Origin: an uncultured Flavobacteriales bacterium
GTDB lineage: Bacteria; Bacteroidota; Bacteroidia; Flavobacteriales_G; Salibacteraceae
DNA: 64,000 nt
Direction of reading: 5' to 3'
Assembly: GCA_905479105.1 (NCBI GenBank)
Contig: CAJQLE010000002.1
Location: 186,001-250,000 of the forward strand
The notes under the pieces are model-generated. The model did no database searches. It saw only the letters and a program-made list of their open reading frames with translations, and was not told the origin of the DNA. Shown piece after piece: positions 31,452-44,992 of the stretch. Within the stretch, counting starts at the first letter, position 1; each line of letters begins with the position of its first letter. The position numbers and the translations under genes are program-made.

Positions 31452-32279
31452 GTGGATTACGTTGAAGTAGTGTTGTCATTTGAAGAAAGTGTTTTCGGTG
31501 AAATTCTGGAAGCAGAGCTCGCAGAGATTGGGTTTGAGAGTTTTGTCAATGAACAAAACACACTCAAGGCCTATATCAGCGTTGACAATTTCGTTAGCTC
31601 CGATTTAATGGCAATACTGACATCATATTCTGATAATGTGATGGACAGCAAGATCCAAAACATAGCCCACACAAATTGGAACGCAGTTTGGGAAGCATCC
31701 TACGAACCCGTATTAATCGAAAATAGCATTTACATCAAAGCCCCTTTTCACAAAGACCATCCAACGGCAGAAATAAGCATTACACTAGATCCAAACATGT
31801 CATTTGGAACTGGACACCACCCTACCACACACATGATGCTGAAAGAGTTATCACTCATCGACCTCAGCAACAAACGCCTATGCGATTTTGGATGTGGCAG
31901 TGGGATTTTATCGATTTATGCTTCAATCAAAGGTGCATCTGGAATAGGAATAGAAATTGACGAACACGCTGCAGAAGCCGCTCGAACTAACCTTAAAATT
32001 AATGATGTCTCTAACTTTGATATAATCACAGGTGATATAGCCTCTTTAGGCGAGCAATCTTTTGATATTATCGCAGCCAACATCAATAGAAACGTAATAG
32101 AAGAATCTTTAAAACAATTTAAAAACGTGATACCTCCAGGAGGAAAACTGCTCTGTGCAGGGTTTTTAAATGCAGACGAAGAAGGATTGACTAAAAGACT
32201 GAACAAAGCAGGATTCCAAATCATCAGAAAGGATGAAAAAGAAGGATGGACAATGCTTTCAACACAATACAGCGCATGA
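31452..32279 (+). CDS. prmA: Ribosomal protein L11 methyltransferase
   Basis: The protein has 275 residues with a GTG start (MDYVEVVLSF), and no ATG lies nearby. The N-terminal substrate-recognition domain (about 1-95) is followed by a class I SAM methyltransferase with FGTGHHPTTHMML, DFGCGSGILSIYA (SAM glycine-rich loop) and DIIAANINRNVI (NxN-type motif IV). It trimethylates several amino groups of ribosomal protein L11. The stop overlaps the start of the next gene (ATGA). Confidence 0.94.
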   Translation: MDYVEVVLSFEESVFGEILEAELAEIGFESFVNEQNTLKAYISVDNFVSSDLMAILTSYSDNVMDSKIQNIAHTNWNAVWEASYEPVLIENSIYIKAPFHKDHPTAEISITLDPNMSFGTGHHPTTHMMLKELSLIDLSNKRLCDFGCGSGILSIYASIKGASGIGIEIDEHAAEAARTNLKINDVSNFDIITGDIASLGEQSFDIIAANINRNVIEESLKQFKNVIPPGGKLLCAGFLNADEEGLTKRLNKAGFQIIRKDEKEGWTMLSTQYSA

Positions 32280-35200
32280 GAAAATTGCTAATTCTATTCT
32301 CCATCATCACCATTCCTCAGATAATGGTTGGTCAATCATTTAAGGAGTTTAACAGTCAAGCAACGTTCATTGAAGAACTCAAACAACAAATCGTAGAAAA
32401 ATCTCTGGGTGATGCCAAAAAGGTTCACAAAGACATGATTGATAATTTCGAAGAAATGTGGACTGAGCTTAACTCATTCACTCCTTCCGAAAAATCAAAA
32501 ATCTACAACACCAGCAATAAGATTCTAGATTCTCGATTAAAGGTGATTCCTGATGTCCGCGATTATATTGAAGCTATCATTATCATCAAAGAATCCGAAT
32601 CAGGAGCCTCGAAATTAAATGACTGGCACGTCATACTGGATGCAGTGTTGGGCGGAAGATCTGCCAGAAAAGAGTTCGGAACATTCCTAAGCTTCAGCTC
32701 TCAACTTTATTCTAAGAACATTATTTACCATTCAGCCTCTACAGAGTGGATTTCAGACAATTCAAACTACAGATTTGAAATAGAAGATGGAAACCCGAAA
32801 TTGATAATCCCATCGCTTAACCTTAAATGCCTATCGAAGAACTCAGACCTTGAAATTAAAAACACAAGCGGAGTTTATTATCCATTGGACGAAAAATGGA
32901 TTGGGAAAAATGGAACGGTTACTTGGGAAAGAGCTGGACTTGATCCAAATCGAGTTTATGCCGTCATTAATGACTATGACATTTTAATGAAATTCTCAAA
33001 GTATGATGCTGATTCAGTTACTTTTTACAACGTAGACTACTTTCCAGATCCATTGTTGGGCAGACTAGAAGATGCGGTGCGCGCTAATGTCACTGAAGAA
33101 AACTCTTCTTTCCCATCCTTTGTATCGTACAGTAAACGTCTAAAAATTGCCAACATTGATATAAATGTGGATTATGAAGGCGGTTTCACCCAACGCGGTG
33201 CCCGATTTATTGCCAGTGGGTCAAAAGAAGATCCAGCTTACTTGCTCTTCTACCTCAACGAAAAACCCTTCTTAGAAGTGAAATCAATCAGCTTCAGTAT
33301 TAAAGAAGATAAAATCACCACTACGGATGCAGCTGTGAAATTCATTCTGCATGATGACTCAATTACTCATCCAGGTCTTGATTTTAAGTACAATCGCGAA
33401 TCTCGCCTTGTAAATCTTTTCAAGTCTTTTGAAGGGCTTCAAAAAGCTCCATATTTTGATAGCTATCATGCCATTGATATTTATACAGAATTAGTGACTT
33501 GGAAAATTGACCAACCAAGGATTGAATTCACCACTATACCAAACAGCTCGGACAACAGAGCATTTTTTGAATCGGATTATTATTTCCGAGAAAACAGATT
33601 TGACCAACTTTTAGGATTAAGCATGACTCATCCAATGGTAGAACTTAAGGCCTGCTTTGAGTCAAGAGGTAGCAATTTGATTTGGGATGAAGATGTTGCG
33701 AAATGTCTTCATACAGACCTTACAGACGCTCAGGTCTTACTTCTCAATTACACCAACCTTGGACTTGTAGACTATGACCCTGAGACCCACAGAGTAAGAG
33801 CTAAAGAAAGGATGAATCACTATGTGGCGGCAAAATCTGAAAAAGAAGACTATGATGTCATCCAAGTTAGCTCTGATATTGGGACTATGGAAAACGCGAG
33901 CATGAACCTCATCGATGAGGTATTCACCTTGAAAATTAATGGGATAAAGAACATAACACTTTCCGATTCACATCAAGTAGTGCTCTTTCCAGATAAAGGA
34001 ACCATTACGATGGGAAAAAATCGAGATTTTGATTTTTCAGGTGTCGTAAAAGCAGGTCGTTTAGAATTCTTTGGAAACAATTTCAAATTCTCGTATGACA
34101 TGTTCAATATCGACATGCCTAATGTTGACTCGCTTAGATTGATTGTTTCATCCGGAGAACGAACAGCGACAGGACGAGAACGTCTCGTTCGTGTAAGCAC
34201 AGTAATTGAAGATGTCACCGGCACCTTAGAAATTGACGACCCAGCGAACAAATCAGGACTTGAGCAACTAGAGCAATACCCGATATTTACCAGTATTGAA
34301 ACCTCTTTTGCATTTTATGACAGAAGCAGGATTCATAATACGGCTTACAAAAGAGAGAACTTCTATTTCGAATTGGACCCTTTTGAATTTGACAGTCTAG
34401 ACAACTTTAGAAATGAGCGGGTTCAATTTGACGGAAACTTTGCAAGTGCTGATATATTCCCTGAATTCAGAGAAACATTAAAAGTTCAGCCCGACTACTC
34501 ATTAGGTTTTGTCAGAACCACTCCTAGAGAAGGCTACCCTATCTATCGGGGCAAAGGAACTTACAATGACACGATTAAAATGAGTCATGAAGGGTTGAGA
34601 GGTTCGGGTAAACTTAAATTCTTAAGCAGTACGACCAAATCAACAGACTTTTTGTTTTTACCCCAAGAAATGCAGACCATCGCCAGCTCCTTTGTGATTG
34701 ATGAGCAAATGGGTCAAGTGGAATACCCGCCTACAACAGGTAAAAACATCAAGCAAGATTGGAAGCCTTATGACGACATCTTACACAATGAAACTACAGA
34801 TGCTCCATTTTTGATGTACGATGGATCACAGTTGACAGGAGGTCTAGATTTAACATCCAATGAACTGACCGGAGCTGGACTATTCGCCTTTGACAAGGCA
34901 GAACTTGAATCCGAGCTTTTCGAATTTAAATTCAGTGGCTTTCACAGTGATACGGCTGACTTTAGACTAAAGTCCAATGTTTCTTCTTTTGAAGGCTTTC
35001 AGTTTAAGACCAACAATGTGGAAGCGGATATAGATTTCACCAAAAGAAAAAGTGATTTCGTATCAAATGACGGAACTTCTATGATGGAGTTTCCTGCCAA
35101 CCAATACGTTGCCTTTATGGATCGATTTACTTGGTTTATGGATCAAGAAGCGATCGAACTTTCAGGTGGTAAAACAACCAAAGGAACTAGTGCAGGAGCT

Positions 35201-36730
35201 ATGCAATTTGAAGGTTCGCGATTTATTTCTATGCATCCTGATCAAGATTCTTTAGAATTTTACTCTCCTGCCGCTCGTTATGACGTAAAGAATTCAATCA
35301 TCGATGCCAGTCAAACCGAATTCATTCAAGTAGCAGATGCACTTATATATCCTGACAGCGGACTGATTACTGTTCTGCGAAAGGCGAAAATGAAAACCCT
35401 CAAGAACTGCAGAATTGTTGCCAATGCCATTACGAAATACCACAAAATCGATAGTGCAACGGTGGATATTTTTGCGCGCAAAGACTATTTCGGAACTGGT
35501 TTATATACATACAAGGATGCCGCTGGTGGTCGTCAGCAAATCCGGTTCAACTCCGTAAACGTTGATAGTTCATATCAGACCTATGCTAAAGGAAGTATTG
35601 CTGATGATAGAGGCTTCACTTTAAGTCCATATTTCGAATTCAAAGGTGATGTTCGCCTAGAAGCAAGCAACAAAGACCTCACTTTCAATGGGTATTCCCG
35701 CCTAAGACATCAATGTTATGAAGCAATTCCTTTGGAATGGTTCAGCTTCAAAGCCGCCATTGATCCTGAAGAAATCTTCATACCAATAGGGAAGACCCTC
35801 AATAACGAGGATGATGATTTACTTACCTCTTCAATTGTTCTAGATAAGGATACAGGCGAAATATATTCATCATTTGTATCCGTAAAAAGAAGCGACAAAG
35901 ACCCGAATCTATTGCCAGCCAGCGGCTATCTCACCTACAATGATGACGCTAAAGAGTATAGAATTTCAAACATCAATAAATTAACGCAAAGCTCATTGCC
36001 TGGTCAATACATGAGCTTAGCTTCAGAAGAATGTAAGGTTTATAATGAAGGTAAACTGGGCTTTGGTTTAAACCCTGGTCAATTAGACCTCTCTACAGTT
36101 GGTAATATCACACATGATTTAAAAGACCAAAAAATAGAACTAGACGTCCTGATTCTTTTGGATTTCTTCTTTGAGAACAAACTCATTGATGACATGGGTA
36201 AAACAATGGCTGAAAATGCATTGGGCGAACCTTCAGATTTTGAAAGAGACACCTACCAAAAAGGCTTAAGAGAATTCATCGGAACCGATGCTGCTGATAA
36301 GCTCATCGCAACCATAACGCTTACGGGTGAATTCCGGAAATATCCGTCTGAACTTGAAAAAAATATCTTCCTTACAGAAGTGAAACTGAAATGGAATCCA
36401 GAAACAGACTCCTACCAATCAGTTGGGAAAATTGGTGTCGGAAATATTGGCAAACGCCAAGTAAACGTTAAGGTTAATGGCAAAGTTGAGGTTGAAGTTG
36501 GACGAATTCCAGCAATTTCTATCTACCTTGAAGCAGATAAAGAAACTTGGTGGTATTTTCAATACTCTAGAAACATAATGCAAGCCTACTCGAGCCTAGA
36601 CGAATTTAACTCTACAATCACTGAACTTAAGCCAGATAAGCGCAAATTGAAGGTAGACAAGGGTGAGTCTGCTTATAGCTTTATGCTATCGAGCAAGAGA
36701 CGCAAAGAAGATTTCATGAGTAAATTCTAA
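32276..36730 (+). CDS. Giant secreted protein of unknown function
   Basis: The protein has 1484 residues from the ATG at 32276, which overlaps the prmA stop (ATGA) and starts a signal peptide (MRKLLILFSIITIPQIMVGQ). A longer frame from 32246 lies inside prmA and is rejected. After an alpha-helical start (about 20-130), the chain is almost entirely beta-strand-like, with repeated polar-aromatic alternation (KAGRLEFFGNNFKFSY, LFAFDKAELESELFEFKF, ATVDIFARKDYFGTGLY). No transmembrane segment after the signal and no T9SS sorting domain are seen; the end is basic (SSKRRKEDFMSKF). No family is recognised with confidence. A periplasmic, beta-solenoid or beta-jellyroll role is inference. plsY follows 40 bp downstream. 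Confidence 0.8.
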   Translation: MRKLLILFSIITIPQIMVGQSFKEFNSQATFIEELKQQIVEKSLGDAKKVHKDMIDNFEEMWTELNSFTPSEKSKIYNTSNKILDSRLKVIPDVRDYIEAIIIIKESESGASKLNDWHVILDAVLGGRSARKEFGTFLSFSSQLYSKNIIYHSASTEWISDNSNYRFEIEDGNPKLIIPSLNLKCLSKNSDLEIKNTSGVYYPLDEKWIGKNGTVTWERAGLDPNRVYAVINDYDILMKFSKYDADSVTFYNVDYFPDPLLGRLEDAVRANVTEENSSFPSFVSYSKRLKIANIDINVDYEGGFTQRGARFIASGSKEDPAYLLFYLNEKPFLEVKSISFSIKEDKITTTDAAVKFILHDDSITHPGLDFKYNRESRLVNLFKSFEGLQKAPYFDSYHAIDIYTELVTWKIDQPRIEFTTIPNSSDNRAFFESDYYFRENRFDQLLGLSMTHPMVELKACFESRGSNLIWDEDVAKCLHTDLTDAQVLLLNYTNLGLVDYDPETHRVRAKERMNHYVAAKSEKEDYDVIQVSSDIGTMENASMNLIDEVFTLKINGIKNITLSDSHQVVLFPDKGTITMGKNRDFDFSGVVKAGRLEFFGNNFKFSYDMFNIDMPNVDSLRLIVSSGERTATGRERLVRVSTVIEDVTGTLEIDDPANKSGLEQLEQYPIFTSIETSFAFYDRSRIHNTAYKRENFYFELDPFEFDSLDNFRNERVQFDGNFASADIFPEFRETLKVQPDYSLGFVRTTPREGYPIYRGKGTYNDTIKMSHEGLRGSGKLKFLSSTTKSTDFLFLPQEMQTIASSFVIDEQMGQVEYPPTTGKNIKQDWKPYDDILHNETTDAPFLMYDGSQLTGGLDLTSNELTGAGLFAFDKAELESELFEFKFSGFHSDTADFRLKSNVSSFEGFQFKTNNVEADIDFTKRKSDFVSNDGTSMMEFPANQYVAFMDRFTWFMDQEAIELSGGKTTKGTSAGAMQFEGSRFISMHPDQDSLEFYSPAARYDVKNSIIDASQTEFIQVADALIYPDSGLITVLRKAKMKTLKNCRIVANAITKYHKIDSATVDIFARKDYFGTGLYTYKDAAGGRQQIRFNSVNVDSSYQTYAKGSIADDRGFTLSPYFEFKGDVRLEASNKDLTFNGYSRLRHQCYEAIPLEWFSFKAAIDPEEIFIPIGKTLNNEDDDLLTSSIVLDKDTGEIYSSFVSVKRSDKDPNLLPASGYLTYNDDAKEYRISNINKLTQSSLPGQYMSLASEECKVYNEGKLGFGLNPGQLDLSTVGNITHDLKDQKIELDVLILLDFFFENKLIDDMGKTMAENALGEPSDFERDTYQKGLREFIGTDAADKLIATITLTGEFRKYPSELEKNIFLTEVKLKWNPETDSYQSVGKIGVGNIGKRQVNVKVNGKVEVEVGRIPAISIYLEADKETWWYFQYSRNIMQAYSSLDEFNSTITELKPDKRKLKVDKGESAYSFMLSSKRRKEDFMSKF

Positions 36731-36770: not shown

Positions 36771-37430
36771 ATGGTAACAATTCCAACAATCGTTTCCTTA
36801 TTGATCGCCTACTTGCTTGGTTCAATCCCTGCTGCTGTTTGGATTGGCAAAGCATTCTATGGCGTTGACGTGCGCGAATATGGAAGTGGCAATGCTGGCG
36901 CTACCAACACATTTCGCGTATTAGGAAAAAAAGCAGGTATTCCGGTTTTATTAATTGACGCGTTGAAAGGATACTTTGCCGTCAGCCTAGTATATATTTT
37001 TGCGGAAGAACCTATTAGTGAAGCTGCTTTCGTTAATTATCAGCTTGCCTTGGGAGTTTCTGCAGTTATCGGCCATATCTTTCCTGTTTTTGCTGGTTTT
37101 CGCGGTGGAAAAGGAATTGCAACACTGCTCGGTTTAATGCTAGCTGTTCATTACCAAGGTGCCCTTTTAGCATTAAGCATCTTTATTCTTGTTTTCTCAA
37201 TTACTCGCTTTGTCTCTCTCGGTTCGATGGTTGCGGCCCTCAGTTTCCCTTTTATCATCGTATTGGTTTTTAGCGCGACAGTTCCAAGCCTGATTGTCTT
37301 TTCAATGTTTGTTGCCATTTTGGTGCTCATAACCCATCAAAAAAATATTGAACGTCTGGTTCGAAAAGAAGAAAGCAAGGTAAATTTTTCGCTAAAAAAC
37401 CTAATTAGACAAGTAGGCGAAGACGATTAA
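36771..37430 (+). CDS. plsY: Acyl-phosphate glycerol-3-phosphate acyltransferase PlsY
   Basis: The protein has 219 residues with five to seven membrane segments. The three conserved cytoplasmic motifs are visible: GSIPAAVWIGK (about 17-27), DVREYGSGNAGATNTFRVLG and FRGGKGIATLLG. It transfers acyl groups from acyl-phosphate to glycerol-3-phosphate, the first step of phospholipid synthesis. The C-terminus is soluble and charged. It follows the giant secreted protein gene by 40 bp. Confidence 0.95.
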   Translation: MVTIPTIVSLLIAYLLGSIPAAVWIGKAFYGVDVREYGSGNAGATNTFRVLGKKAGIPVLLIDALKGYFAVSLVYIFAEEPISEAAFVNYQLALGVSAVIGHIFPVFAGFRGGKGIATLLGLMLAVHYQGALLALSIFILVFSITRFVSLGSMVAALSFPFIIVLVFSATVPSLIVFSMFVAILVLITHQKNIERLVRKEESKVNFSLKNLIRQVGEDD

Positions 37431-37545
37431 TCCTTGTTTTTGCGTTATTCACATTCAATTGATTAAAATCATTGATTTATAAGGTTTAATCTAGAACCTT
37501 GTTTAAGACTTTTACCTTGCACTTAAAAGCACCTTATCGAAAGTT

Positions 37546-40500
37546 TTGAAGGTTTATCAATACATCATCATCCTACTGCTTTGGCTCCTGAACGTCCCTG
37601 TTTTAAACGCACAGGAATCCGAAGAAGACCTCAATAAAAAGGCACTTGAATTATTCGAACAAGAAGAGTTCGAGCAGGCATTCAAGATCTATTCGACCCT
37701 ATTAAGTATAGAAATGCAAAGCCCAGAGTATAACTTTAGGTTTGGGGCATGCCAACTTTTCACTGCCCAAGACAAAGAAGAACCGCTGAAGTACTTGAAG
37801 TTTGCAGTTGATAATGCCAGTGCTCCAGCACTTGCTCATTTCTATTACGGCTTAGGGCTTCACTTGAATTACCAATTCGATAGAGCCATTAAGGAATACA
37901 AAAAGTATCAACCCGAAGCCACTAAAAAAGAAAAGGAATCAGCCTTAGTAGTTCACCACATCGAGCAATGCGAAAATGGAAAGACGCTTGTCTCAAACTT
38001 TACTGACATTTCAGTTATTCAACGAAGCGTACTTCCTCGTAGTGACTTTTACCGCAATTACGATCTAAGTGAGTTTGGCGGCAAAATCATTGTGAAACCA
38101 GAAGATTTCATGTCCGAAGAAGACAAGAAGCGTGATGCATCTTTTCTCATGTATTTCCAGCAGGAAGCCGACTTGATTTATTACGCATCGTATTCTGAAA
38201 AAAATGCCACTGGAAAAGACCTTTATTTCATCCAAAAACTTCCTACTGGAGGTTGGAGTGAACCTAAGAGATTGAGTGATGAAATCAATACGTCATTCGA
38301 TGAGGATTATCCATTCATACGTCCGGGTGGCAACATGCTCTATTTCGCATCTAAAGGCCATAATAGCATGGGTGGCTATGACATATTCAAAAGTGAGCGC
38401 AGAGGTGATGGTTCTTGGACCAAACCAATCAACATGGAATTCGCCATTAATACACCTTGGGATGAATTCATGTTCATTTCAGATAAAGAAGAAAATTCAG
38501 CTTGGTTTGCGAGCAATAGAGAAACAAACAATAAGCAAGTCACTGTATATCACATCGGAATTGAGCGCATTCCTCTTGACTTGACACTCATTAAAGGAAG
38601 CTTTGAAGCTGAAGGATCTAAAAAAGCCACCATCACCGTTGAGGATATGATCCAAAATAAAGTGGTTGGCGTATTTGACTCAGAACGACAACTAGGTGGC
38701 TATTTGCTAGATTTAAAAGGCAGCGGAAAATACAAGTTCATTGTTGAGGCAGAAGAAAGTAATTCCATTCACACAGGAATTGTTGAGGTTCCGCGCGAAA
38801 AAGGTCTTAAACAATTCAGGCAAGAGATGATTCTTGCTACTGTTGATGGCAAAGAACAACTTCAAATCATCAATCATTTTGACGAACCTATTGAAGACGA
38901 ACAACTTCTAACTGCCGATATCCTAAGAAAGCAAGCTAGCCTTTCAGTGAATTCTTCTGAAGAAGATATAGTTAGAAGTGTCGAAATTATTGATGCGGGT
39001 GATACTCCTGAGAAAAATAGCAATCCATCCGGACTAAGTCAGAAAGAGCGAGTAGCGCTAGCAGGAACTGCCGTAAACACCTTAAAAGAGGAAGGTAAGA
39101 ACATGGATCAAAAAGTGTCTGCTCTCTATGAAGTAATGCAAGAAAATATAAATTCTGATGATCCAGCATCAATAGCAAAAGCTGCTATAGCGAGTGAACT
39201 TGCAGTAATCTACAAAGATGAAGCAGAAAAAAGACAAGTAGCTGTTCAAAGGATGGAAGGAACGCTCTCTACTTTAAGAACAGGATCGTTGGATGAAGAT
39301 GCGTTTAACGCGCAATACGCACAATTAGCAGCAACTCAAAATAATTTTAAGACACTCGAGAAATTTGAAACTAAGATCAGTTCAGATTTCGAAAAACGAA
39401 TGGATCCTACTCTTTCGGAGTATGAAAGCAAAAATCAAGAAGTGCAAACACTTGAATCAGATATTACCTCAATTGATGAAGAGGTTGCTTATTACCGAAC
39501 TGAGATAGATAATTCCAAAGATGATCTGATCAAAGAAGAACTGCAGATTCAGATAGATGAAGCGCAAGCAGCTAAACCTCAAAAAATAGCTGCACTAGAA
39601 AGGGCCAAAAAAGAATTTAAATCACTTGAAACACAAAAATCGAATGCAAAGCGCTACCTCGATTTATCCTCAACTCTCTTGGCATTAGCAGCACAGCAAG
39701 CTCCTCAAATGACCAACATAGTGAGCTCTGCCGCAATCAATGCAATGCAAACTGCGCTAAGCATTAAAGCCCAGTCTGACCCAGCGCTCATGGCTTTTAT
39801 TAATCCTGAAAAAGCTGAAGAGGCCATCGCTGAGAATTTAAGTGATAACAGAAAAGCTACCGATGAATCCTCCGAAGAAAAAACATCAAACCCTGAATCA
39901 ACAGGATCTGCTGGATCCTCTAGCCAAGATGTCAATGACGAAATAAAAGCAATTGAAGCAAAGGAGTCTGCTCCTGAAATAGTCTCTGGAGACTATAACA
40001 CCCATTTCCAAGAGCAATTAGCCATGGCATCAAATGCCGAAGACCCTATAATTGCTGAAAGTAGAAAGGCAGAATTGTATGACCAATGGGCCGAGAACAT
40101 TGAAGTAAGAATGGACTCCATTGAAATTGCAAAATCCAAAACTTCAGATGCTGTCCAAATTTCTAATCTGGATGCTTTGTTGATGAAATTAAATGAAGAA
40201 AAAGCTGAGAAAGAAGACTTAGCAATGGATAGCTATCAGAGCATTGCGAGCCTCAGTGAAGCAGCCGCAAATAATTTCACTGCTCCAAATGAAAATACTC
40301 CATCCAATCAAAATTCGAATATCCCTCCCGTATCACAGGAGCTTCTAGAAGGTGATGGTTTCCCGCCTTCAGTCGTTCAAATCAATGAAACGTACAACTC
40401 GGAACTAGAAAGCTTAACTGCCGCAGCTGAAAATGCTAACACAAGTGAAAACTTACTGAATCTTGCCAAAGGCTATGATAACTGGGCAAAAGATTTGCAG

Positions 40501-43179
40501 GTGGAGTTGGATGTATTAGCCTCTCAAATAAATGTCGCAACCGATGAAGAAACAAAAGCTATACTTCAATCAAAAGCGGCTGAAGTTGGCGAATTACGTT
40601 TAGAAAAAGTTAGTAAATCAACTGCACTCAAGCAAGAAGCATCAACCACTAAAGACGCAAAGGTTGCTGCTGCTTCCCAATCAGAGCTGCAATCTCAGTT
40701 ATATGAGTACGTTGAGAATTACAATAGCCAGGCATTCCAGCAAATTCAAAACCAGATTAACATCATTCCTGATGATAATTTAAAGAAAGCACAGAGTGAA
40801 ACATTAAATAAAAACTGGATGATCGGCATTCAGAATGAAAAAGTCAAAACTGAGGCACGTCTATCAAATACCACCGATCCAAAGCAAATGTTTGATCTTC
40901 AAAATCAGTTAGCCGCCTTAAATGCAGAAAAAGAAATCGTGCAAGGGCGTTTAGATTCTTTAAATATCGATCAAAATATTGCTTCAGGACCATCAGCACC
41001 TGCAAGTGTCATGGTGAAAGGAAGTGAAAGGTTCGAAGGTTACATTCCTGTTGAAAGCGCCTCAATAGAAGAATACTCGATTGAAGCTGATAAAAGCTTA
41101 TCGCTTCAGGAAGATATCGGAGATGAACTTTCTGCATTTGAAACACAGCTTTCGGAAACAAAAAAGAAAAAAGTAAAACGAGAAATTCAAGCTCAAATAG
41201 AACAGAAAGAATCAGAACAGCGCGTAATAAAAATGCAAGCAGATTTCTATACTGAAGCAGCTATCAAATTAGAGTCTGCAGAGACACAAGTACTCACCAT
41301 GGAGGTGGGTGACATGCTCCCTTCAGAAAAACAACAGCAAATCTCAAACGCGCTAGCATTAGAAGCAGAACAAGCAACAACCGAAGCTGTGACAGCTCTT
41401 GAGACTGCTGAGGCTATCAAGAAGAAAAAGACAAGGAAAGCCGCTGTAACAAATGCAATGATTCTGCAGAATAACGCAGCCTTAAAGCGTCAAAAAGCGG
41501 ATCTGTCTCAAAATTTAGTGGGTGAAATTCAAGCCATCGAGAATGCTACTATCGCTAAGAATTTCATTATTCTCCCAATGCAGGAAGTGGTATTACCGGT
41601 GACCAATAAAACACTCAACCCTAATGAAGTTGAAGATGTAAAGGCAACAAACGAATATACTTTCTATCAAGCTGAAAAAGCCAAATCCGACTCCATCAGA
41701 ACTGAAATTATCCGACTCGAATCTTTAGAAAAACAATACACCAACCGCGGTCAGTTTTTAATGGAACAATCTGCTTCAACACCATTGGGAAATGGAGCCG
41801 CCCAAGCCAGACTAGAATTGGCAAATCAAGCCTATGAGGATTTTGAGCGTGCAGATAGTATCTCAGAAAATGTAGCAAGGTTTAAGCGTGAGGCCACATA
41901 TATTGAAAATGAGGCCAATAGAAGTTTGCTTACTCTTCCAGAAGAGGCATACATGAATATATTGGCTTACTACAATAACCCGAATGGAGTTGACGCGATT
42001 TCACCTCAAACTACTACCGAAGAAATTCCCGCTTTAGCTAATTCGTCAACCTCAGGAACAGATCACAACCCCTTTGCTCAAGAGAAAGCCTTTAAATTAA
42101 ATGCTCCCACAGCAGAGGATAATTCATCTCTTATTGTTGAACAGGATTACCTGACTAACACCATATTTGAACTAGAAGAAACGGCTCCAGTGAGCACATA
42201 TAGCGAAAGAAATCCTATTCCAGTGGATCCTCCATTACCAACTGGATTAATGTATAAAGTGCAAATAGGTGCGTTCAGAAATGCCATAAAGCAGGATGCT
42301 TTCAAAGGAATAGCACCTATTGTTGGTGAGTCCACTAATTCAGGATTTACAAGGTATTCAGCTGGTGAGTTCAATACGTTCAGCAGCGCTGACGGTGCTA
42401 AGGTTAAAATCCAAGGTATCGGTTACACAGACGCTTTCGTTGTGGCTTACTTGAATGGTAAGCGCATTTCTATTACTGACGCAAAAACAGCTGAAGCAGG
42501 CGGTCAAATTTCAACGGCAGGTCAAGGAATAGCCGGAACGAACGCACCGAGCAATGCACAAACTAGACCGCAAGCAAATTTCAAACCTTCAATCATCAAG
42601 CAAGGAAGCATCGAGATCAACGCTGTGGAGAATATTGGTGGAACATTCTTTACAGTTCAAGTAGGAGTTTTCTCTAAGCCTGTTAATTCAGCAGCTATAT
42701 TCAACATCACACCACTTAATCAAGAAAACCTTACGAACGGAACTTACCGCTACTCAACTGGGAAGTTTGACAATGAAAACATTGCTACCCAAGCGCGTGA
42801 TGAAGCTCGTGCATTGGGTGTAAGTGATGCCTTTGTTACCGCCTACAGAGATGGTGTAAGGGTTGCAGTGGAAGTGGCGCGTGGAAACACTAACAGCACT
42901 ACTCCAAAGCCTCAGGTCGCACCGAAGCCCGCACCTGTTCAAAACACACCGATCAACACATCCTACAGAATACTATTGGGAAGCTTCATAGGCGAAGTTC
43001 CTTTAATTGAGGCCACTCAAATCTTACTTTTAAGTGGCGAAGGAGTTGATAAGATCAACAACAATGATGGAAGTAGCAGCTACTACTATGGTGAGTATAC
43101 GAATCAATCCGAAGCCACTTCAAGGGCTTCAGAATTGCGCAATGCAGGCTTAACCCAAGCAAAAGCTGTAGAGCAATAA
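37546..43179 (+). CDS. Giant TPR-PD40-coiled-coil protein with three C-terminal SPOR domains
   Basis: The protein has 1877 residues with a TTG start and signal peptide (MKVYQYIIILLLWLLNVPVLNAQ). TPR repeats (about 25-130) precede PD40/WD40-like beta-propeller blades (about 200-335; LMYFQQEADLIYYASYSEK, YFASKGHNSMGGYDIFKS). A long Ala/Glu/Lys/Gln-rich coiled-coil region follows (about 450-1480). The C-terminus carries three SPOR-type domains: about 1567-1650 (MYKVQIGAFRNAI), 1695-1785 (FFTVQVGVFSKPV) and 1804-1877 (SYRILLGSFIGEV). The TPR-PD40 head resembles Bacteroidota OmpA/PorE-type envelope proteins, but the OmpA domain is replaced by the rod and SPOR repeats. A periplasmic scaffold for the division septum is the inferred role. 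It is a single gene with clpS 46 bp after it. Confidence 0.85.
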   Translation: MKVYQYIIILLLWLLNVPVLNAQESEEDLNKKALELFEQEEFEQAFKIYSTLLSIEMQSPEYNFRFGACQLFTAQDKEEPLKYLKFAVDNASAPALAHFYYGLGLHLNYQFDRAIKEYKKYQPEATKKEKESALVVHHIEQCENGKTLVSNFTDISVIQRSVLPRSDFYRNYDLSEFGGKIIVKPEDFMSEEDKKRDASFLMYFQQEADLIYYASYSEKNATGKDLYFIQKLPTGGWSEPKRLSDEINTSFDEDYPFIRPGGNMLYFASKGHNSMGGYDIFKSERRGDGSWTKPINMEFAINTPWDEFMFISDKEENSAWFASNRETNNKQVTVYHIGIERIPLDLTLIKGSFEAEGSKKATITVEDMIQNKVVGVFDSERQLGGYLLDLKGSGKYKFIVEAEESNSIHTGIVEVPREKGLKQFRQEMILATVDGKEQLQIINHFDEPIEDEQLLTADILRKQASLSVNSSEEDIVRSVEIIDAGDTPEKNSNPSGLSQKERVALAGTAVNTLKEEGKNMDQKVSALYEVMQENINSDDPASIAKAAIASELAVIYKDEAEKRQVAVQRMEGTLSTLRTGSLDEDAFNAQYAQLAATQNNFKTLEKFETKISSDFEKRMDPTLSEYESKNQEVQTLESDITSIDEEVAYYRTEIDNSKDDLIKEELQIQIDEAQAAKPQKIAALERAKKEFKSLETQKSNAKRYLDLSSTLLALAAQQAPQMTNIVSSAAINAMQTALSIKAQSDPALMAFINPEKAEEAIAENLSDNRKATDESSEEKTSNPESTGSAGSSSQDVNDEIKAIEAKESAPEIVSGDYNTHFQEQLAMASNAEDPIIAESRKAELYDQWAENIEVRMDSIEIAKSKTSDAVQISNLDALLMKLNEEKAEKEDLAMDSYQSIASLSEAAANNFTAPNENTPSNQNSNIPPVSQELLEGDGFPPSVVQINETYNSELESLTAAAENANTSENLLNLAKGYDNWAKDLQVELDVLASQINVATDEETKAILQSKAAEVGELRLEKVSKSTALKQEASTTKDAKVAAASQSELQSQLYEYVENYNSQAFQQIQNQINIIPDDNLKKAQSETLNKNWMIGIQNEKVKTEARLSNTTDPKQMFDLQNQLAALNAEKEIVQGRLDSLNIDQNIASGPSAPASVMVKGSERFEGYIPVESASIEEYSIEADKSLSLQEDIGDELSAFETQLSETKKKKVKREIQAQIEQKESEQRVIKMQADFYTEAAIKLESAETQVLTMEVGDMLPSEKQQQISNALALEAEQATTEAVTALETAEAIKKKKTRKAAVTNAMILQNNAALKRQKADLSQNLVGEIQAIENATIAKNFIILPMQEVVLPVTNKTLNPNEVEDVKATNEYTFYQAEKAKSDSIRTEIIRLESLEKQYTNRGQFLMEQSASTPLGNGAAQARLELANQAYEDFERADSISENVARFKREATYIENEANRSLLTLPEEAYMNILAYYNNPNGVDAISPQTTTEEIPALANSSTSGTDHNPFAQEKAFKLNAPTAEDNSSLIVEQDYLTNTIFELEETAPVSTYSERNPIPVDPPLPTGLMYKVQIGAFRNAIKQDAFKGIAPIVGESTNSGFTRYSAGEFNTFSSADGAKVKIQGIGYTDAFVVAYLNGKRISITDAKTAEAGGQISTAGQGIAGTNAPSNAQTRPQANFKPSIIKQGSIEINAVENIGGTFFTVQVGVFSKPVNSAAIFNITPLNQENLTNGTYRYSTGKFDNENIATQARDEARALGVSDAFVTAYRDGVRVAVEVARGNTNSTTPKPQVAPKPAPVQNTPINTSYRILLGSFIGEVPLIEATQILLLSGEGVDKINNNDGSSSYYYGEYTNQSEATSRASELRNAGLTQAKAVEQ

Positions 43180-43225: not shown

Positions 43226-43504
43226 ATGAGCACAGCATACGAAACAGACGAACTTGTTGAAGAGAGCATTGACCTAGATAATTCTCACGCAATCATTTTA
43301 TATAATGACGATGAGAATTCATTCGATCATGTAATTGATTCATTGGTCGATATCTGCAAGCATGAACCTATGCAGGCCGAACAAGTAGCTTGGATCGTGC
43401 ACACAAAAGGCAAATGCGATGTTAAACATGGTGCTTTTGACAAGCTTCATCCACTTTGCAAGGGCCTTCAGTCTAGAGGGCTTTCTGCAGTAATTGAGCA
43501 ATAA
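43226..43504 (+). CDS. clpS: ATP-dependent Clp protease adaptor ClpS
   Basis: The protein has 92 residues. The conserved surface YNDDENSFDHVIDSL (about 27-41; the NDD motif) binds N-degron substrates, and WIVHTKGKCDVKHG is in the second half. ClpS delivers proteins with destabilising N-terminal residues to ClpA/ClpC. No clp ATPase gene is in the window. It is 2 bp upstream of the NfeD-like gene's leader and probably heads that operon. Confidence 0.92.
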   Translation: MSTAYETDELVEESIDLDNSHAIILYNDDENSFDHVIDSLVDICKHEPMQAEQVAWIVHTKGKCDVKHGAFDKLHPLCKGLQSRGLSAVIEQ

Positions 43505-43506
43505 TC

Positions 43507-43968
43507 ATGAGTGCTAGCATTGTCATCCTATTATTGATAATCGCCATAGGATTGGTGCTGATTGAAATTTTTCTCATTCCAGGAATTGGAATTGCAGGTA
43601 TTGCAGGTGCAATTCTAATAATCACTTCTCTTGTTCTAGCCTATGAAGTAGGCACAGCTTTCGGTCACTATGTTCTAGCTGGTACAGGTCTAATTTCTAT
43701 TGGGTTAGTGCTTTTGGCCTTCAGGACAAAAACATGGGATAGACTTAGCTTGAAATCAGATATTCACTCGAAAGTGGATAATCACGCCACTAACCTTTCT
43801 CTTGGCGAACGAGGAAAAACCGTTAGTCGTTTGAACCCTATGGGAAAAGCGATGTTCAATAATAAATACTTTGAAGTTTCATCAAAAGGTGCGTACATTG
43901 AAGCGGATTCTGAGATTGAAATTGTTCAGGTCGACCATAATAAAATCATTGTCATTCAGATAAATTAA
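43507..43968 (+). CDS. NfeD-like membrane protein
   Basis: The protein has 153 residues. Three hydrophobic segments (about 4-26, 29-47, 54-75) precede an OB-fold-like C-terminal domain (about 95-153, [18 protein letters not shown]). This is the short NfeD form without the serine-protease domain. NfeD-like proteins are encoded next to, and act with, flotillin-like proteins, as here: floA starts 4 bp downstream. Confidence 0.88.
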
Positions 43969-43972
43969 TACT

Positions 43973-44992
43973 ATGCTTTCAGGAATTGGACTTCTCGTTG
44001 TGATTGTAATACTATCCATTGTTGGATTGTGGGTCTTGTTGTATTTTGTTCCCGTTGGATTGTGGTTTCAAGCCATTTTAACAGGTACGAGTGTGCCCCT
44101 ACTCCAATTGGTTTTCATGCGATGGAGAAAGGTTCCACCGGCAATTATCGTTAATGCGATGATCGCAGCCAAAAAAGCGGGCATTGTCATCACTTCCGAC
44201 CAATTGGAAGCCCATTTCCTGGCTGGAGGTCATGTTCAAAATGTAGTGAACGCCTTGATCTCCGCTGACAAAGCAAATATTCCATTAGACTTCAACATGG
44301 CTACAGCGATAGATCTTGCTGGTAGAAATGTGTTTGAAGCGGTTACCATGTCTGTAAACCCTAAAGTGATTGATACACCTCCTGTTACAGCGGTGGCTAA
44401 AGACGGTATTCAATTAATTGCTAAAGCAAGAGTCACGGTAAGAGCAAACATCAAACAACTTGTTGGTGGAGCTGGTGAAGACACCATCTTAGCGAGAGTT
44501 GGAGAAGGAATTGTTACTTCTATTGGATCAGCAGAAAGTCATAAAAAAGTTTTAGAAAATCCTGATTCAATTTCCAAAGTTGTTCTGTCAAGAGGACTAG
44601 ACTCTGGCACAGCATTCGAAATTCTTTCAATTGATATTGCGGATGTAGATATAGGAAAGAATATTGGAGCAGAACTTCAAATGGATCAAGCGGAAGCGGA
44701 CAAGAATATTGCACAAGCTAAAGCGGAAGAAAGAAGAGCCATGGCAGTAGCTGAAGAACAAGAAATGAAAGCGAAAGCGCAAGAAGCTCGGGCTAAAGTA
44801 ATTGAAGCGGAAGCTGAAATTCCTAAAGCTATTGCAGAAGCATTTAGAAACGGCAACTTTGGTGTTATGGATTATCAGCGATATAAGAATATCCAAGCAG
44901 ATACTGAGATGCGAGATTCAATAGCTAGACCACCTGAATCAAAGTTAGGCCCGGTAGGTAGGTCAAGTAAAAAGAAAGAAGACGATAAATAA
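43973..44992 (+). CDS. floA: Flotillin-like protein FloA
   Basis: The protein has 339 residues. The N-terminal hydrophobic hairpin (about 5-40) is followed by an SPFH domain (about 45-215) and an EA-rich coiled coil (about 235-290, [20 protein letters not shown]) that drives oligomerisation. FloA organises functional membrane microdomains. It forms an operon with the NfeD-like gene. Its stop codon directly abuts the stop of convergent tpiA with no spacer base. Confidence 0.93.

What the first reader, a model, noticed from the sequence alone, without database searches (positions are those of the whole stretch)
37546..43179. Giant TPR-PD40-coiled-coil protein with three SPOR domains
A TPR and PD40 head like that of Bacteroidota OmpA/PorE-type proteins is joined to about 1000 residues of predicted coiled coil and three SPOR-type domains at the end. 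SPOR domains bind glycan stripped of peptides at division sites. The architecture suggests a very long periplasmic rod with a peptidoglycan-binding tip, possibly linking the septum or T9SS machinery to the wall. I know of no described protein with this layout.
Basis: partly seen in the sequence, partly recalled or inferred. Interest (0 to 1): 0.6.

Follow-up and report, generated by a model that had tools for sequence, protein, structure and literature searches.

The report
Giant wall-binding scaffold of Bacteroidota
A real, widely conserved and apparently undescribed giant exported protein of Bacteroidota joins a docking head to a long helical arm and a tail that should grip bare cell-wall sugar chains, so it probably tethers some envelope machinery to places where the wall is being split, such as the division site.

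Summary
Window 37546-43179 (+) is one uninterrupted 1877-aa gene. Forty homologues from 40 other genomes keep the same head, arm and tail, which excludes a misassembly. The head is TPR, a PD40/TolB-type propeller and a carboxypeptidase-regulatory-like domain. The tail has three SPOR domains in 39 of 41 proteins and one in 2. SPOR1 passes Pfam; SPOR2 and SPOR3 rest on profile comparison and predicted fold. The glycan-binding Gln is invariant in SPOR1 and SPOR2 but Leu in this protein's SPOR3, so two domains look competent and one degenerate. The arm is helical but not one coiled-coil rod: AlphaFold2 gives hairpins and bundles with flexible linkers, including four related hairpin units. It resembles a PorE-type scaffold with the OmpA tail replaced by a long arm and SPOR domains, and without a lipobox. 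In a class sample the head occurs in 72 of 148 genomes and the strong SPOR tail in 60, while SprA occurs in 143, so it is not a core T9SS part. Relatives keep a gene order with an uncharacterised ~1490-aa exported protein upstream and clpS downstream. Best reading: a periplasmic scaffold that brings its head's partner to peptide-stripped, mostly septal, wall. New variant of a known kind; function untested.

The parts
37546..43179 (+). Giant TPR-propeller-CRD-helical arm-SPOR protein, 1877 aa
   Evidence: Open frame, TTG start; 40 homologues aligned over the whole length
37546..37611 (+). Signal peptide (residues 1-22, boundary by eye); no lipobox
   Evidence: Read from the translation; no lipobox pattern in the first 45 residues of 41 proteins, although 12 of 41 have some Cys in the first 40
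37621..37995 (+). TPR domain (residues 26-150)
   Evidence: AF2 helices; VIA-align to the TPR domain of human SGT, 2vyi, Z 15.3, rmsd 2.8, 122 aligned; TPR_16 in 22 of 41 proteins
38002..38574 (+). PD40/TolB-type propeller region (residues 153-343)
   Evidence: PD40 in 35 of 41 proteins; 11 strands of 3 or more residues in the AF2 model
38581..38877 (+). Carboxypeptidase-regulatory-like beta domain (residues 346-444)
   Evidence: 8 strands in the AF2 model; CarboxypepD_reg in 8 of 41 proteins at E up to 0.1
38899..39873 (+). First helical block of the arm (residues 452-776)
   Evidence: AF2 helices, mostly high pLDDT, low at 481-495
39355..39615 (+). Hairpin unit 1 (residues 604-690)
   Evidence: Iterated profile hit E 1.5e-11; not significant in the first hhalign comparison of whole blocks
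39991..40242 (+). Hairpin unit 2 (residues 816-899)
   Evidence: Profile hit; hhalign of its block to that of unit 3 probability 97.3
40378..40638 (+). Hairpin unit 3 (residues 945-1031)
40717..40968 (+). Hairpin unit 4 (residues 1058-1141)
   Evidence: hhalign to the block of unit 3 probability 88.1 and of unit 2 70.6
41059..41976 (+). Last helical blocks of the arm (residues 1172-1477)
   Evidence: AF2 helices
41977..42198 (+). Mostly low-confidence linker (residues 1478-1551)
   Evidence: pLDDT under 50 at residues 1482-1523 and 1527-1538
42235..42480 (+). SPOR domain 1 (residues 1564-1645), Gln1573 and Arg1603 invariant
   Evidence: Pfam SPOR; tail profile matches the CwlC SPOR 1x60 here, E 2.5e-4 for the sequence, 0.0046 for the stretch; Q 28/28 and R 28/28
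42634..42876 (+). SPOR domain 2 (residues 1697-1777), Gln1705 invariant
   Evidence: hhalign to SPOR1 E 1.8e-33; Q 28/28, R 22 and K 6 of 28
42952..43176 (+). SPOR domain 3 (residues 1803-1877), degenerate at the Gln (Leu1810)
   Evidence: hhalign to SPOR1 E 7.7e-18; VIA-align to CwlC SPOR 1x60 Z 7.9, rmsd 2.9, 75 of 79 aligned; Q in 13 of 28
32246..36730 (+). Conserved upstream gene, 1494-aa exported protein of unknown family
   Evidence: Upstream on the same strand in 33 of 40 loci; found in all 72 head-bearing class genomes; no Pfam match under E 0.01, no NCBIfam under 0.1, no PDB sequence match under 1
36771..37430 (+). plsY, between the two giant genes
   Evidence: Pfam E 6.6e-57; 29 of 38 loci
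43226..43504 (+). clpS, directly downstream
   Evidence: Pfam ClpS E 9.7e-16; downstream in 36 of 40 loci

Best explanation
An exported, non-lipidated periplasmic scaffold. The TPR-propeller-CRD head docks to one or more envelope proteins (inferred from PorE and CHU_0125, whose heads have the same kind of layout). The helical arm acts as a flexible spacer. SPOR1 and SPOR2, helped by the degenerate SPOR3, bind glycan strands freed of stem peptides. The protein thus concentrates its head's partner where amidases have stripped the wall, above all at the division septum. Shown: the gene, the domain order, its conservation, the predicted SPOR fold and the retained glycan-contact Gln. Inferred: periplasmic location, glycan binding, septal recruitment and the identity of the partner; the product of the conserved upstream gene is the first candidate.
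For: Same layout in 41 proteins. In 40-residue bins, mean identity to the window protein is 0.41-0.66 over residues 41-480 (head) and 0.59-0.62 over SPOR1, against 0.12-0.31 over the arm (481-1520), as expected of two binding ends and a spacer; SPOR2 has 0.35-0.45 and SPOR3 0.32-0.33. Gln in SPOR1 and SPOR2 in 28 of 28, Arg or Lys at the basic position in 28 of 28 of both; PMC6895207 (passages) ties this Gln and a basic patch to denuded-glycan binding. The tail is near neutral (pI 7.7) while head and arm are acidic (4.9, 4.5). Sequence and fold matches to CwlC SPOR. PorE-like head, with the PorE layout from PMC7192894 passages.
Against: No localisation, binding or mutant data. SPOR3 lacks the Gln in this protein, and the modelled SPOR1 lacks the first helix. 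Distribution is patchy (72 of 148 class genomes; 2 of 198 in the phylum-wide draw, one of them the window's own), so it is not a universal division protein. The named neighbours clpS, nfeD, floA, plsY and prmA are not division genes. Another SPOR protein of the same genome carries CCDC81-type HU domains, so SPOR need not mean division in every case.
Confidence: 0.55

Rival explanations
1. An accessory anchor of the type IX secretion or gliding machinery: the PorE-like head binds T9SS parts and the SPOR tail fixes them to the wall.
For: Head related to PorE; the window genome has SprA; PorE is a T9SS component with TPR-propeller-CRD-OmpA layout (PMC7192894 passages).
Against: SprA in 143 of 148 genomes, head in 72; G093 has the head but no SprA match; no T9SS model among the matches of the neighbours scanned; PD40 regions of many other proteins in the same genomes match the head profile too.
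Confidence: 0.15
2. A general outer-membrane to wall tether or integrity factor, spread around the whole cell, like CHU_0125 but using SPOR instead of OmpA; no septal role.
For: CHU_0125 (TPR-PD40-OmpA) deletion impairs outer-membrane integrity (PMC5891637 passages); of the NCBIfam models its family scores best on the head.
Against: No lipobox pattern to hold it in the outer membrane in 41 of 41; the SPOR ligand is enriched at septa (PMC6895207 abstract and passages).
Confidence: 0.2
3. A component working with the conserved upstream ~1490-aa protein, for instance in lipid, LPS or outer-membrane protein traffic, with the SPOR tail only positioning it. This is compatible with the main reading and overlaps it.
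For: Upstream gene in 33 of 40 loci; found in 72 of 72 head genomes against 55 of the other 76 (naive hypergeometric P 1.7e-7, not corrected for relatedness).
Against: Within 3 kb in only 27 of 72 head genomes of the class sample (some of the 42 on other contigs may be assembly breaks); the upstream gene also occurs without the head; its own function is unknown.
Confidence: 0.25

Closest known systems
PorE (T9SS, Porphyromonas gingivalis) family
   Same: TPR, then propeller, then CRD at the N-terminus; a wall-binding domain at the C-terminus; NCBIfam NF052230 matches residues 207-356 (E 7e-20)
   Different: No lipobox pattern, no OmpA match; about 1,070 residues of helical arm and three SPOR domains instead; propeller region about 190 residues against residues 167-435 in PorE; 70.8 bits against a 600-bit cut-off
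CHU_0125 family OmpA-like outer membrane integrity protein
   Same: TPR-PD40 head; NCBIfam NF053607 matches at 203-405 (E 2.9e-23)
   Different: OmpA tail and putative lipoprotein of 656 aa against 1877 aa here; 82.2 bits against a 620-bit cut-off
SPOR-domain proteins (FtsN, DamX, DedD, RlpA, CwlC)
   Same: SPOR domain at the C-terminus with the conserved Gln; sequence and predicted fold close to CwlC SPOR (1x60)
   Different: By PMC6895207 (passages) most have one small SPOR domain behind an N-terminal membrane anchor; here three SPOR domains end a giant exported scaffold

Membership tests
SPOR-domain proteins (PF05036) | A SPOR domain over the Pfam cut-off | tested here: met
   32.1 bits against 21 for SPOR1; 39 of 39 homologous tails match at E up to 1
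SPOR-domain proteins (PF05036) | Conserved Gln in strand 1 and a basic position | tested here: met
   SPOR1 and SPOR2: Q 28/28; R 28/28 and R/K 28/28; SPOR3 of this protein: Leu and Ser, so not met there
SPOR-domain proteins (PF05036) | Binding to denuded glycan, septal localisation | not testable with these tools
   Needs experiment
PorE / CHU_0125 (TPR-PD40-CRD-OmpA) | TPR, propeller and CRD head | tested here: met
   the propeller's closure and blade number were not determined
PorE / CHU_0125 (TPR-PD40-CRD-OmpA) | OmpA_C domain at the C-terminus | tested here: not met
   No OmpA match at E up to 1 in the window protein or in 39 tails (all 20 families shown); SPOR instead
PorE / CHU_0125 (TPR-PD40-CRD-OmpA) | Lipoprotein signal | tested here: not met
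   No lipobox pattern in 41 of 41 (simple pattern, starts chosen by eye)
PorE / CHU_0125 (TPR-PD40-CRD-OmpA) | Score over the NCBIfam cut-off | tested here: not met
   70.8 of 600 and 82.2 of 620 bits
Core type IX secretion system component | Occurs wherever SprA occurs | tested here: not met
   SprA 143 of 148, head 72 of 148

The most novel reading that the evidence does not exclude
A dedicated division-site tether of many Bacteroidia: a giant periplasmic arm that grips peptide-free septal glycan with two or three SPOR domains and holds a TolB-like PD40 head, and with it an outer-membrane or transport machine, at the constricting septum. It would do in this group part of what Tol-Pal or FtsN do elsewhere.
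Probability: 0.22. Interest if true: 0.75.

Novelty: new variant of a known kind. Interest (0 to 1): 0.48.

Why it matters
How Bacteroidota couple the outer membrane and its large machines to wall splitting is, to my knowledge, poorly described. This gene is long, conserved, the only head match under E 1e-100 in 68 of 72 genomes that have one, and sits in a recognisable gene order, so it can be found and deleted easily. It shows that the PorE-type head, known with an OmpA tail whose structure holds a stem-peptide fragment (PMC7192894), has also been joined to a tail that should bind only peptide-free glycan: a change of address from wall in general to wall being split. It also points at an uncharacterised, very well conserved ~1490-aa exported protein next to it.

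Tried and rejected
Misassembly of two genes: rejected, because 40 other genomes carry head, arm and tail in one frame. One further genome (G048, L071 and L072) has it split over two contig ends and was dropped before the counts.

One long coiled coil: rejected on the models. No coiled-coil program was run; this rests on predicted helices with turns.

Arm length set by the number of hairpin units: not supported (Spearman 0.17, P 0.29 over 41 proteins; 7 of 41 had no detected unit).

Foldseek gave no convincing whole-model match. Head half: two matches under E 0.001, human HGSNAT (3.9e-4, TM 0.09 by query) and a Bacteroides fragilis putative cell adhesion protein, 4h40 (5.2e-4, rmsd 21.5). Tail half: none under 0.001. 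Single-domain TPR and CwlC-SPOR matches came from VIA-align; no solved propeller is among the 50 rows shown for the head half. PDB sequence search with the single protein found nothing up to E 1.

A published Bacteroidota outer-membrane machine as a home for it: the F. johnsoniae BAM paper PMC12611786 has no occurrence of SPOR, PD40 or peptidoglycan. The large unnamed outer-membrane proteins in the table of PMC5891637 could not be compared.

Promoter and terminator scan: fewer sites than shuffles, and it does not cover Bacteroidota promoters.

Phylum-wide draw: 2 of 198, one being the window's own genome. This draw differs from the class draw and lists 22 of its 198 rows, so I do not use it for a rate.

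Full report
What was checked. The reported ORF is exact: 37546-43179, + strand, 1877 aa, TTG start, no internal stop. The window lies in a 2.79-Mb, 99.85% complete genome. A search of 60 genomes (the window's own and 59 relatives) gave matches at E up to 0.001 in 60 of 60, but many of these are only to the PD40 part. The nearest named relative is a Flavobacteriales MAG, UBA4422 (78% identity over the whole protein). I took the whole gene from 40 other genomes: 4 named contigs (L031-L034) and 36 stretches (L035-L070), giving 41 proteins with the window. One further genome has the gene split over two contig ends and was dropped; the remaining genomes were not fetched.

Anatomy. AlphaFold2 on an alignment of 41 first halves gave mean pLDDT 85.0 and pTM 0.53: TPR helices 26-150, a beta region 153-343 with 11 strands, a second beta domain 346-444 with 8 strands, then helices 452-776 and 796-910, with pLDDT under 50 at 18-22, 481-495, 776-809 and 913-925. 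The second half (39 sequences; L062 and L064, with one SPOR, left out) gave pLDDT 82.7 and pTM 0.44: helices to residue 1477 with a low-confidence gap at 1141-1162, a long low-confidence linker, then three compact alpha/beta domains. Low pTM means that the overall shape is not known. The TPR region matches solved TPR domains (for example 2vyi, Z 15.3, rmsd 2.8, 122 aligned). PD40 matches 35 of 41 and TPR_16 22 of 41 proteins at E up to 0.1. The PD40 match of the window protein alone is just under the Pfam cut-off. The propeller region spans about 190 residues, against residues 167-435 in PorE (PMC7192894 passages), so it is smaller; the number of blades was not determined.

SPOR tail. SPOR1 passes Pfam in the window protein, and SPOR is matched in 39 of 39 tails. 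SPOR2 and SPOR3 are found by comparison with SPOR1 (hhalign E 1.8e-33 and 7.7e-18), and the profile built from SPOR3 hits SPOR1 and SPOR2 as well in 39 of 41 proteins (own-domain hits are by construction, cross hits are not). L062 and L064 have one SPOR domain by the SPOR1 profile. The tail profile's only PDB match by sequence up to E 10 is the SPOR domain of the B. subtilis amidase CwlC (1x60; E 2.5e-4 for the sequence, 0.0046 for the stretch, over SPOR1). SPOR3 of the model matches the same entry in structure (Z 7.9, rmsd 2.9, 75 of 79; the tool warns that Z under 8 can mean only a common arrangement). In the model only SPOR3 shows the full canonical order of elements; SPOR1 lacks the first helix and SPOR2 has a short one. 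In the 28 tails of alignment A4 (28 of the 41 proteins, chosen for diversity and without the two one-SPOR proteins) the strand-1 Gln is invariant in SPOR1 and SPOR2 and kept in 13 of 28 in SPOR3, where the window has Leu. The position 4 before the strand-3 Gly is Arg in 28 of 28 (SPOR1), Arg in 22 and Lys in 6 of 28 (SPOR2), but basic in only 3 of 28 in SPOR3. In the 41-protein alignment the Gln counts are 39 (SPOR1), 39 (SPOR2) and 17 (SPOR3); I take the 2 missing in SPOR1 and SPOR2 to be the two one-SPOR proteins, absent or misaligned there. PMC6895207 (passages read) reports that this Gln (Q270 in RlpA, homologous to Q251 in FtsN and Q351 in DamX) and a basic patch bind glycan only where stem peptides are gone. 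That the invariant Arg corresponds to FtsN R285 is my alignment from recall.

Arm. From the end of the head to SPOR1 the 41 proteins have 610-1540 residues, median 1206. In the window protein three blocks related by hhalign on 11 near relatives (probabilities 97.3, 88.1, 70.6), and a fourth stretch found by the iterated profile, form a family of ~85-residue helical hairpins (604-690, 816-899, 945-1031, 1058-1141). Unit number does not explain arm length over the 41 proteins (Spearman 0.17, P 0.29; 7 of 41 have none detected).

Neighbours. In the 40 fetched loci, on the same strand, the upstream ~1490-aa gene is found in 33 of 40, plsY in 29 of 38, clpS in 36 of 40, nfeD in 26 of 38 and floA in 25 of 36 (BLAST E up to 1e-4; loci without enough flank are left out of each denominator; the prmA and tpiA counts are biased by that rule and are not used). 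In the class sample the upstream gene is within 3 kb of the head in 27 of 72 genomes, on the same contig but farther in 3, and on another contig in 42, some of which may be assembly breaks. It is found at E up to 1e-20 in all 72 head genomes (in G118 only as fragments) and in 55 of the other 76. Related genomes share both genes by descent, so this is a lead, not proof.

Distribution. Of 148 class genomes (the same handles in the four searches), 72 have the head at E under 1e-100, 60 have the tail at E under 1e-40, all within the 72, and 143 have SprA. In 68 of the 72 there is one such head match; G068, G071, G082 and G183 have a second. Of the 12 head genomes outside the 60, G044 and G049 carry a one-SPOR version (L062, L064), G151 has a weaker tail match in a frame of the same length (E 2.5e-25, with one stop inside the stretch), and the other 9 were not followed. 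One head genome (G093, 95% complete) has no SprA match. So the protein is widespread in the class but often absent, and does not track T9SS.

What it most likely does. Two conserved binding ends on a variable spacer, exported and without a lipobox pattern, fit a periplasmic scaffold. The head order TPR-propeller-CRD is that of PorE (PMC7192894 passages) and TPR-PD40 that of CHU_0125 (PMC5891637 passages), both of which end in an OmpA domain. Here that end is SPOR. If SPOR1 and SPOR2 bind as in other bacteria, the protein gathers at amidase-processed wall, chiefly the septum. Which machine the head holds is unknown. Steps after the domain assignment are inference.

Novelty. No paper describing this layout appeared in the listings of searches (the library lacks most subscription papers, and the two SPOR papers sought are not held). 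The parts are known; the combination, the three-fold SPOR tail and the gene order look undescribed.

Noticed in passing
window 32246-36730 (+): A 1494-aa exported protein, very well conserved (mean column identity 50% over 22 members), in 127 of 148 class genomes, with no Pfam match under E 0.01 and no NCBIfam or PDB sequence match: a better conserved unknown than the giant itself.
   Followed up: partly
window 43226-44992 (+): clpS, an NfeD-like gene and floA (flotillin-like) follow the giant in most fetched relatives; the reason for the conserved order is unknown.
   Followed up: partly
L103:571-1710: A 380-aa frame of the same genome joins CCDC81-type HU domains to a SPOR domain.
   Followed up: no
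L104:1378-2697: A 440-aa frame of the same genome with a sub-threshold TPR match and two SPOR stretches.
   Followed up: no
window 37440-37545: Short blocks upstream of the giant that recur in close relatives (around TTCACATT and GACTTTTAC), possibly a promoter.
   Followed up: no
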